A DNA stretch of 64,000 bases from Aquanectria penicillioides (Eukaryota; Ascomycota; Sordariomycetes; Hypocreales; Nectriaceae). The stretch covers positions 1,054,001-1,118,000 of the forward strand of contig PYIU01000002.1 in the NCBI GenBank assembly GCA_003415625.1, read 5' to 3'. Of this stretch, positions 22,260 to 25,855 are shown in pieces (positions within the stretch are counted from its first letter, which is position 1; each line of letters starts with the position of its first letter). Both the position numbers and the translations under genes were made by a program. Below the pieces are notes generated by a model, which made no database searches, was not told the origin of the DNA, and worked only from the letters and a program-made list of their open reading frames with translations.

Positions 22260-25200
22260 ATGGAGTCGTTTCTACCTCTAGGCGGCTTCCAGCTGCCCTT
22301 TCAAAAGCGCCTTAGCCGGCTCTACAACGACACCAAGAAATCGAGCGATTTCGTCAAGGAACCCGTCCAGAATGAAGAGGACCCCGAAATCAAGGCGTTG
22401 CACCGCAAGCTGCGCATCCAAAAGGACCGCCTTGTCAGTTGGGGTCTCGAGTGGTCAGATCCGACTCAATCTGCTGAGATCGATGAGTCCCTGTCCAAGG
22501 CTGGTCTGAGTGAAGTGGTGGGAAGTATCATGTCCACGATCAAGGACATTCTTGCTGAGGCCGAACCTCTATGGCTTAGTTCCAAGCGAATCATTCAGTC
22601 AAACCAGACCTCACAGGACTCAAAACCGCCTCTGGTACACTGGGATAAGAACCGGTTTGAAGATTTGGTCAATGATCTTACTACGTCAATCGATACGCTC
22701 TACGACCTCTCCAGGACACGTGCATCTAGCGCAATTCCTCGCAAGTCTTCGAAATCGCTCTTCAAATCCCCTTCGGCTTCTGATGATTTTCGCCCATTCG
22801 AGTCTACGCGGATGCAGACCCCGCAGCAAATCGACCCCCAGACACTAACCCACTTGCGCCCAAGGCAAGGGGATGAGTCCTCTAACCCCCGTGAGGTCGT
22901 TTTTATGAGTAAAACCGCCTACTCGGAACTTACTCAAGGGTCGTCTCGACAGCCTTGGGCCCCATTGCTTCTAGAGTATGCTACCTTTGATTCCATCTTT
23001 GCTATGACTGGTATCATGCCACCCATGGCCCGCTTCGAGAAACTCTCGGCTGGTCTGCAACAAGATCCCCAAAGATCGCCTGGCACCTGGACTGGACTGC
23101 CTCGTCTGCTCGGATACTTTGAAGATTTTGAGAACTCGAGACTTGGCCTTGTTTACAGGTTCCCACCATCCTTCAACGCTGTCTCATTTGAGCGTCTCAC
23201 GAAGAACCCGTTGTATAATCTCCCTACTCTGGGTGACCTTCTCTCCCGGCCAGATTCAGAGCCCAAGCTTGAAGCCAAGTTCAGATTAGCTCACAACCTC
23301 GTGAACACTATTTTCGACATGCATGCTAGAGGGGTAACCCACGGACACCTTTTCGACAATAACATCTCCTTTTGTGACGCCGTCACGACTGAGCCTGGGG
23401 TCAGCAATGGCGAGGTTGATGTTCGACGCCCCCTGGTGTCGTCCTTCGACTTGTTCCCAGACGACACTCCGTCACCGATACCAAACCCCTTCCGCCATCC
23501 TCTTGATCCTCGCAATACACCAACCTCCCCCTTGGCTAAAAACTCCGACCAACGAGTCTTGGACCTTTACTCTCTCGCCATGATACTCCTCTCGATTGGT
23601 CTATGGACTAAAGTTGAAAATCTTGTTTCTGATCCCTCTTCTTCCTTTATATCGGAATCCCTGCTAGAGCAACTCTCTGTACGCTGTGGAAGTCTATATA
23701 TGAAGGCAGTGCAAACTTGTTGGACTGCTGTCGATGATGAGCTTGCAGGACGCTCTAGTGGAGAAGCTTTGCTCTCGACGGTCCAAGTCAGAGCGAGTCG
23801 GTTTTTGGAAGCTTGTTGCATTCTAGATGGAGTCAGCGGTCTGGAGGAAAGGCTCGATCAAGAACTACATCAATCCGAACCATCGTTCCAAGCGACTCAT
23901 ATTGTTGCCCCTGCCTCCAAAAGTAGCAAGGACAGTAAGGACAGCAAGGACTTGAAACTTGCAAGGAAGCCGATCAAGGAGAAGCAGGCTCTTGCGGAAA
24001 AACCTGCTCCCGTAAAGGCTATGGGCAAAGCCGATACAAATGCAGTTATCGATGGTAAGCCTGATTCCCCCTTTCAATAAAATTTGCAAGCCGCTGACGA
24101 TATTTAGATGTTGTATCAGAGAAGCCCTCTGCTAAGGAAGCCAAAGTTAGATTATATCCACATGTTGCCCTTGCCCCAGAAATTGTGGATAGATGGAACA
24201 AGATCCTCATGCCTCAAATCAACCATGCCCTCCGACACTTCTACCGCAAGCATCCCGAGTCTGTTGAACTCTCTCTCGAGTCAATCGGGCCTAGCGCTCA
24301 AAAGACACAGCCAACCGTGCTGGTAGTTTGCACATCGGTTGGCAAAGTCCGCGCCATCCTAAATAAGAGGCTAGGTGAATTATTTGACGGCACAAGTGGT
24401 TTCGCCCTGAAAGTATGTCGGGGTCATGTTTTGAGATCACGACGCCAGCCAGGCACAGTGCTAAGGTCGATGGCTCGAAGGAGCAACGCTGGCGGTCCTA
24501 ATGGCGATGATAATATGGATGCCATAAACCCAGAGTACCAAGAGCGGCCAGGAAATGGGGCAAGTATCGGCGCCTGGATTGGAGACCGGCATCTCCCGCC
24601 CGTTAGCTTAGGCGGTCTTGTCATTGTCGATGACAAGCCGTACGGCATGACCGTTCATCATATGCTAGATGACCCGGATCGAGACTTTGGTAACAACGAT
24701 GCTTTGCGATGTAGTGCTCTCCCTGACCTGGACTGGTACTCTGGGTCTGGCGGGGAGAGCACTGTCGATGATGACGATGCTTATGAGCTCTCAGACACCG
24801 AATCAGAAGCATACTCTGATTCTGACATCACGAGTGACTACGAGGATGACGAGGATGAAGAAGACGAAGATTATAATGAACCTGGTGATATTCCAGGCAT
24901 AGAGCCTGGCTGTGGCGAAGGGTATATTGTCACACAGCCCGCCCTCGATGATGTGGAGGAGGGCTTTTACCCCTGCCCTGAAACTGAGGATGAAGACCAC
25001 CTCGACACTTATAGCCTTGGCGAAATTTACGCTTCAAGTGGCATTCGAAGAAAACACGCCAATGGTCTCGTTCATGAGGTTGATTGGGCACTCTTTGAAT
25101 TTGCCTATGATCGTCTTCCCGACGATAACTCTATCCCTCGCGCCCAGGACTCGGCTTCGCTCCGAAAACTGGGGTCAAAACACAAGGACAGTGCTGCCTT

Positions 25201-25855
25201 GCTTCGGCCGACTACTGTTGCATCTTCATCCTCCTTACCAGGAATGGAGGTCCAATGTATGGCTAGAACAAGTGGTTTGCAAACGGGACAGATTCTCCCT
25301 GCCCTTACAAGCGTGAAGATTTATGGCCGGGCATCTCCCAGTCACACGTACCAAGTCACAAGCGTCATCTCCCCCCAAGATGCCGGTAAGAAAGCGGGTA
25401 TTCCTCTTGGTATTCCCGGAGACAGTGGAGCATGGGTCATCGACCGCCGTCATGGTCAGCTTTGCGGGCACGTTCTAGCTTGGAGCCAGCGAAAACATGT
25501 CGCCTACATCTGTCCGATGGATGTGCTGCTGCTAGATATTGCCGAGACTCTAGAGGCACATGAGGTAAAGCTTCCAGGAGGCGAGCCCGTGGTTACGCTA
25601 GGATATGAGGAAGATCATCGATCGTCCAACGAGAAGCAAGCCCCAAGACATCCTGACGAAGACCTTGATGACCTCATTGAGGAAGAACCGGAAAATCAAG
25701 ACCTGCCGCCCCGGCTGGTGACATCTGTCAGCACAAGGGATCATTCCAGTCATCGCCAAGGGGAATTTCGAGTTGCAGTGCCAGCGAGCGTAGCTCATCG
25801 AGCCCAATACGCCTTGACACTTCTGGCGAGCTCGGGGGCCTGGCGAGTCGATTAG
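22260..25855 (+). CDS. HeLo-like / pseudokinase / trypsin-like protease multidomain protein
   Basis: Two exons, 22260-24054 and 24108-25855 (53-nt intron, GTAAGC to TTTAG), encode about 1180 residues. Residues 1-190 resemble HeLo-type domains: KLRIQKDRLVSWG, a helical segment VGSIMSTIKDILAEAE, and RFEDLVNDLTTSIDTL. Residues about 215-545 resemble the kinase-like domain often paired with HeLo, but the catalytic loop is HGH (361-363) instead of HRD, and the DFG site reads FDLF (396-399), so it should be a pseudokinase; DLYSLAMILLSIGLW follows. A Lys/Ser linker (554-598) leads to a chymotrypsin-fold-like part with His in TVHHM (782 or 783), Asp in EVDWALFEF (924) and Ser in GDSGAW (1038). A strongly acidic insert (817-858) sits between His and Asp. 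No signal peptide, so a cytosolic role is likely. Function is unknown; a cell-death or self-recognition role is inference. Confidence 0.85.

What the first reader, a model, noticed from the sequence alone, without database searches (positions are those of the whole stretch)
22260..25855. Fusion of a HeLo-like domain, a pseudokinase and a trypsin-like protease in one cytosolic protein
Seen: the N-terminal part has HeLo-like helices; the centre keeps kinase landmarks but lacks the catalytic Asp (HGH for HRD); the C-terminal part has His (TVHHM), Asp (VDWALFEF) and Ser (GDSGAW) in trypsin order, with a long acidic insert. Known: HeLo-type domains are membrane-active cell-death modules in fungi (HET-S partner, MLKL-like proteins), and fungal gasdermins are cut by partner proteases of the subtilisin type. 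Inference: this could be a self-contained switch in which a pseudokinase controls a chymotrypsin-fold protease next to a death-domain relative. I know of no described fungal system with this layout.
Basis: partly seen in the sequence, partly recalled or inferred. Interest (0 to 1): 0.85.

Follow-up and report, generated by a model that had tools for sequence, protein, structure and literature searches.

The report
Fungal HeLo–pseudokinase fused to NAL1-like protease
Many moulds share a conserved, uncharacterised protein that joins a relative of a fungal cell-death domain and a dead kinase to a probable protein-cutting enzyme whose predicted shape most resembles the rice leaf-width protease NAL1.

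The parts
22260..24054 (+). Exon 1: HeLo domain, pseudokinase and start of linker (residues 1-598, plus the first base of the next codon)
24055..24107 (+). 53-nt intron, GTAAGC donor, GCTGAC branch-like site, TAG acceptor
   Evidence: Sequence read directly; 115 of 120 listed long relatives cover the parts on both sides at more than 70%; no RNA data
24108..25855 (+). Exon 2: alpha/beta domain, serine protease and tail
22260..22364 (+). Residues 1-35: conserved, non-hydrophobic N-terminal segment in place of the HeLo membrane helix
22383..22727 (+). Residues 42-156: HeLo helical core
   Evidence: helices 42-66, 68-81, 84-113, 130-156
22815..23870 (+). Residues 186-537: kinase fold, catalytically dead by motif
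23340..23348 (+). HGH at residues 361-363, in place of HRD
   Evidence: Position 363 is Asp in 4 of 118 rows and 3 of 120 rows
23442..23450 (+). SFD at residues 395-397, in place of DFG
   Evidence: Position 395 is Ser in 115 of 120 rows and 106 of 119 rows, and Asp in none of either
23895..24053 (+). Residues 546-598: variable Lys/Ser-rich linker
   Evidence: Mean identity 0.21 for residues 546-610, 106 rows
24173..24421 (+). Residues 621-703: alpha/beta domain before the protease, NAL1-like arrangement
   Evidence: equivalence inferred from aligned ranges and lengths, no residue-by-residue alignment was seen
24542..25582 (+). Residues 744-1090: chymotrypsin-fold serine protease
24728..24877 (+). 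Residues 806-855: acidic, low-confidence insert between the His and Asp of the triad
   Evidence: similar inserts by eye in L004 and L020
24659..24661 (+). His783, proposed catalytic His (His782 is also invariant)
   Evidence: His783 aligns with the single His of the motif in L003 and L004
25082..25084 (+). Asp924, proposed catalytic Asp
25424..25426 (+). Ser1038, proposed nucleophile (GDSGAW)
   Evidence: GDSGAW in 236 of 236 relatives checked
25750..25902 (+). Tail peptide of close relatives, in a different frame from exon 2 in this copy
   Evidence: SSPI(R/H)L near the end in the 14 best of 116 relatives and 26 of 116 overall

Best explanation
This is an intracellular regulatory serine protease. 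The output is the C-terminal NAL1-like protease (alpha/beta domain plus chymotrypsin fold). The N-terminal HeLo core and the pseudokinase form the control module: they sense a partner or state, hold the protease inactive or cluster it, and release or direct it to cut a specific cellular protein. It does not itself make membrane pores. Shown by computation: the three parts, their joint conservation, the dead kinase motifs, the invariant triad, the predicted fold and the missing hydrophobic helix. Inferred: an intracellular place (no transmembrane-like stretch; no signal-peptide program was run), that the protease is active, that HeLo-pseudokinase controls it, and that the output is limited cleavage of a regulatory protein, as NAL1-type proteases do to TOPLESS-like corepressors.
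Against: No activity, substrate, partner or localisation is known. Control by HeLo-pseudokinase rests on fusion alone, and the 115 of 120 count favours fusions because proteins under about 650 residues could not be candidates. No NAL1 chain was found by sequence at E<=10, so that link is structural. The link of L004 and L020 to this protease is weak: E 0.04, hhalign 89.5% over 42 columns, L020 only through L004. Other HeLo domains do kill cells, and 4 of 10 other HeLo ORFs here also have weak N-terminal hydrophobicity, so the helix test is not absolute.
Confidence: 0.5

Rival explanations
1. Self-contained death switch: the HeLo part is a membrane-attacking executioner, released by the protease or by a signal through the pseudokinase, as in MLKL or HET-S.
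For: HeLo homology. HELL domains in proteins with kinase or pseudokinase domains are noted in the review PMC12881547 (passages). A HeLo-DUF7580 protein without a recognised protease in its 516-residue exon exists in the same genome (L009).
Against: The hydrophobic N-terminal helix is missing here and in 114 of 114 relatives measured. HeLo is highly conserved (0.81); that killers of this kind diversify fast is recalled, not tested.
Confidence: 0.15
2. Immune-type sensor protease: a chymotrypsin-fold counterpart of the S8 and CHAT proteases that activate fungal gasdermins, cutting a separate pore-former.
For: Fungal gasdermin-linked proteases are fused to WD40, TPR, ANK or kinase-like parts or sit in NLRs (PMC12881547 passages), and some fungal NLRs pair a protease with a membrane-targeting domain (PMC10197012 passage). 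The present protein and its ANK-linked distant relative L020 show similar combinations.
Against: No gasdermin search was made; the Pfam scan of 8 window ORFs neither shows nor excludes one. The gene is broadly conserved rather than patchy.
Confidence: 0.2
3. Scaffold with a dead or latent protease; HeLo and kinase parts are relics.
For: Kinase catalytic residues are lost; no Pfam protease profile matches exon 2.
Against: His783, Asp924 and Ser1038 are invariant in the rows examined, and HeLo has the highest mean identity of the segments measured.
Confidence: 0.1

Closest known systems
Rice NAL1 (NARROW LEAF 1) serine protease
   Same: Predicted two-domain arrangement, alpha/beta part then chymotrypsin fold; best match of both Foldseek (E 1.8e-9, TM 0.34/0.52) and VIA-align
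   Different: No sequence match found; the solved NAL1 constructs lie within residues 31-458, leaving no room for HeLo and kinase parts
Fungal HeLo proteins of HET-S type
   Same: HeLo helical core, PF14479
   Different: No hydrophobic N-terminal helix; divergent sequence; HeLo followed by pseudokinase and protease instead of a prion-forming tail
MLKL and fungal HeLo/HELL-kinase proteins (example in this genome: L009)
   Same: N-terminal helical domain followed by a kinase fold without catalytic residues; L009 aligns to the kinase part with E 7e-13, hhalign probability 96.9
   Different: A protease follows here; the HeLo parts of the two barely align (E 0.059), and L009 has a far stronger HeLo score (128.6 bits)
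Fungal S8 and CHAT gasdermin-activating proteases
   Same: Intracellular proteases fused to sensor modules, kinase-like domains among them (PMC12881547 passages)
   Different: Different protease fold (chymotrypsin, not subtilisin or caspase-like); no gasdermin link shown
Yeast Ssy5 (S64) protease
   Same: Fungal protease listed as not secreted, with residues in His-Asp-Ser order (table of PMC5567314, passage)
   Different: No Pfam Peptidase_S64 match reported at E<=10; that Ssy5 has no HeLo or kinase part is recalled

Membership tests
HeLo domain (PF14479) | Profile match above curated cutoff | tested here: met
   26.8 vs 23.2 bits; 33.1 bits for residues 1-158; 70 of 70 rows at E<=1; in-genome HeLo profile 2e-8 with clean controls. 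Against: not listed in the six-frame genome search at E<=0.01; no support against L006 alone
HeLo domain (PF14479) | Four- to five-helix bundle | tested here: inconclusive
   Model shows helices 14-33, 42-66, 68-81, 84-113, 130-156, but residues 1-20 are low confidence and kinases filled the list of fold matches
HET-S-type pore-forming HeLo protein | Hydrophobic N-terminal membrane-attack helix | tested here: not met
   Best 19-residue Kyte-Doolittle mean 0.10 here, -0.80 to 0.66 in the 114 of 120 relatives that cover the segment; other HeLo ORFs of this genome 1.68-1.97 in 6 and 0.53-1.28 in 4 of 10
HET-S-type pore-forming HeLo protein | C-terminal amyloid motif or adjacent NLR | not tested
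   No motif or NLR search was run
Protein pseudokinase | Kinase fold with catalytic residues lost | tested here: met
   Fold. HRD Asp in 4 of 118 rows and 3 of 120 rows; DFG Asp position holds no Asp in either alignment
PA-clan (S1-like) serine protease | Double beta-barrel fold | tested here: met
PA-clan (S1-like) serine protease | His-Asp-Ser in order, conserved | tested here: met
   121 of 121 rows and 121 of 121 rows
PA-clan (S1-like) serine protease | Proteolytic activity | not testable with these tools
   Needs an assay
NAL1 protease family | Two-domain structure (alpha/beta plus protease) | tested here: met
NAL1 protease family | Sequence homology to NAL1 | tested here: inconclusive
   No NAL1 chain among hits at E<=10 with one sequence or a 91-row profile
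NAL1 protease family | Hexameric assembly (recalled) and TOPLESS-type substrate | not testable with these tools
   Substrate from PMC12915138 passages; hexamer recalled, the search found no paper
Peptidase_S64 (Ssy5) | Match to the Pfam S64 profile PF08192 | tested here: not met
   No family reported at E<=10 for exon 2; HMMER filters drop most matches above 0.1

The most novel reading that the evidence does not exclude
Filamentous fungi have an unrecognised class of intracellular NAL1-type proteases attached to interchangeable control modules (HeLo-pseudokinase, ankyrin repeats, zinc fingers), and in this conserved member an MLKL-like killer module has lost its membrane helix and been rebuilt as the switch of a protease.
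Probability: 0.35. Interest if true: 0.8.

Novelty: new variant of a known kind. Interest (0 to 1): 0.63.

Why it matters
HeLo and MLKL-like domains are known mainly as killers. A conserved HeLo-pseudokinase protein without the killing helix, wired to an intact protease, would show that this module can work as a switch for other outputs. It would also add a third protease fold, besides S8 and CHAT, to fungal intracellular proteases joined to sensor-type domains, and would extend the NAL1 arrangement from plants to fungi. The gene occurs in genera that are easy to handle, such as Trichoderma, so it can be tested directly.

Tried and rejected
Profile libraries for the protease half: Pfam and NCBIfam gave nothing at E<=10; PADLOC gave nothing for exon 2 at E<=1 and a weak 0.003 hit to MkoA over residues 334-373 of exon 1, not followed up. 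Sequence searches of solved structures gave only weak unrelated matches for exon 2, a weak CLK1 match for exon 1 and nothing relevant for residues 1-158. VIA-align of exon 1 listed kinases only, so the HeLo bundle was not tested by fold; no MLKL or HET-S chain is among the rows shown, which is not evidence of absence. Profile comparison of exon 1 with canonical HeLo protein L006 failed, and the Pfam HeLo search of the genome missed this gene. Profile comparison of exon 2 with L004 aligned 42 columns only.

Whether the fusion extends outside Sordariomycetes is open. A Rhynchosporium (Leotiomycetes, recalled) gene model, P0103, starts just before the alpha/beta domain; it may be a separate gene or a truncated model. 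L005 was dropped as a possible paralogue: E 0.39 and only the GDSG segment could be read. One search gave no hits because its output was cut by a pipe; one search is the valid rerun. In one search a first hydrophobicity count used 73 of 116 relatives chosen by their first letters; one search replaces it with 114 of 120. Of the 13 HeLo loci L006-L018, ten were counted for hydrophobicity; L009 was not measured, and L017 and L018 were left out because no ORF clearly starting with HeLo was seen. Paper searches without use.

Counts rest on the listed best 120 of 270, of 218 and of 1079 hits, each scored from about 8,000 candidates sharing most words and within a length limit; weaker and shorter proteins were not seen. 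On rechecking I lowered the novel case from 0.40 to 0.35, because the L004/L020 link is weaker than first written.

Full report
Gene structure. The window lies in a 53.76-Mb genome of 13 contigs. Exon 1 (22260-24054) and exon 2 (24108-25855) are joined over a 53-nt intron with ordinary splice sites and give 1180 residues. The four best rows, from Neonectria (two), Dactylonectria and Ilyonectria, are 86-87% identical over residues 650-1100, so the host is probably a member of the Nectriaceae (inference).

HeLo part. PF14479 scores 26.8 bits with exon 1 (cutoff 23.2) and 33.1 bits with residues 1-158. All 70 of 70 rows of a set made of this protein and 69 relatives match it at E<=1. A profile from 11 other HeLo ORFs of this same genome matches this protein at 2e-8 and 115 of 116 long relatives at E<=0.01 (97 at 1e-5), with 0 of 116 shuffled and 0 of 116 reversed controls at 0.01. 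Two results go the other way: the six-frame Pfam HeLo search of the genome at E<=0.01 listed 20 rows but not this gene, and a profile comparison with canonical HeLo protein L006 gave a probability of 0.4%. I read this as a true but divergent HeLo domain. The in-genome profile match begins at residue 43, profile position 36. The earlier positions, which hold the hydrophobic helix that HET-S-type domains are described as using on membranes (passages of PMC10197012 and PMC12881547), are not matched. Here that segment is conserved but polar: best 19-residue Kyte-Doolittle mean 0.10, and -0.80 to 0.66 with median 0.06 in the 114 of 120 relatives that cover it. Among ten other HeLo ORFs counted, six have 1.68-1.97 and four have 0.53-1.28; starts there are first ATGs and unverified. 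The contrast is strong but not absolute.

Conservation and spread. The search with residues 650-1100, among candidates of 0.55 to 1.75 times the full length, found 1079 proteins at E<=0.001; the 120 listed were aligned and 115 cover all three parts at more than 70%. The length limit favours fusions. Of the other five, P0009 and P0327 lack HeLo in their models, P0025 and P0026 lack HeLo and most of the kinase, and P0247 covers 66% of HeLo. Named hosts include Fusarium, Trichoderma, Metarhizium, Claviceps, Colletotrichum, Coniochaeta and Achaetomium. Mean identity to this protein is 0.81 for HeLo, 0.68 for kinase, 0.72 for residues 611-740, 0.80 and 0.75 for two protease stretches, 0.58 for the acidic insert, 0.21 for the linker and 0.27 for the tail. 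Thirty-six contig lengths are shared between the two exon hit lists of 120, in keeping with the exons lying side by side elsewhere. Searches of the genome with exon 2 found no second close copy.

A wider protease set. Relatives in the genome are distant. L003 (29% over 177 residues, E 2e-8) has GDSGAA and a C2H2 zinc-finger exon upstream; the zinc-finger match is below Pfam's cutoff (22.5 against 25.2 bits) and the joining of the two exons is inferred. L004 has TVNHFLD and GDCGSW, a cysteine in place of serine; its link to this protease is E 0.04 and 42 columns by hhalign (89.5%), and Trypsin_2 is below cutoff (13.4 against 27.6 bits). L020 (28% to L004, E 1.2e-15) has GDCG followed by ankyrin repeats. 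L004 and L020 also carry acidic inserts between His and Asp (by eye). This suggests one protease core with exchangeable control modules; their folds were not predicted.

Mechanism. The best-supported account is a regulatory protease whose HeLo-pseudokinase half is the control module. Fusion and joint conservation are shown; control, activity and substrate are inferred. A HET-S-like killing role would be expected to need the membrane helix, which was not found. NAL1-type proteases degrade TOPLESS-like corepressors in plants (abstract and passages of PMC12915138); a comparable regulatory substrate in fungi is a guess.

Literature. Seen: passages of PMC12881547, PMC9815663, PMC10197012, PMC4986451 and PMC5567314 (plus its section 12), abstract and passages of PMC12915138; PMC2838846 was searched for five terms with no hits. 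None of these passages describes a HeLo-pseudokinase-trypsin-fold protein. [quoted passage not shown] PMC5567314 says most fungal serine protease families contain single-domain proteins. The listings showed no paper on this layout, but several were capped, and the library lacks most subscription journals.

Verdict. New variant of a known kind, interest 0.63.

Noticed in passing
window 25750-25902: The tail peptide of close relatives (SSPIRLDTS...FGIGVSG or similar) is present but in a different frame from exon 2, so this copy's tail to 25855 differs; a real frame shift or an assembly error.
   Followed up: partly
L020 1375-3867: Distant protease relative with GDCG and ankyrin repeats in one 830-residue frame.
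   Followed up: partly
L003 1030-3542 (minus strand): Protease relative with a likely C2H2 zinc-finger exon upstream.
   Followed up: partly
L004 214-2496: Relative with cysteine in place of the catalytic serine (GDCGSW), resembling a switch of nucleophile.
   Followed up: partly
L006 1486-2325: Canonical HeLo protein with hydrophobic N-terminus and two similar C-terminal segments that look like HET-S-type prion repeats by eye.
   Followed up: no
L009 1495-3045: HeLo plus DUF7580 pseudokinase-like part, no protease in this exon.
   Followed up: partly
window 502-2688: Subtilase (S8) with PA and fn3_5 domains.
   Followed up: no
window 9646-10926, 19664-20503, 37079-38599: Class I (R) tRNA synthetase catalytic domain, fungal rhodopsin domain and MFS transporter: an ordinary chromosomal neighbourhood.
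   Followed up: no
window about 26120-26290, minus strand: Reading by eye suggests a CCDC25-like coding end; family recalled, not tested.
   Followed up: no
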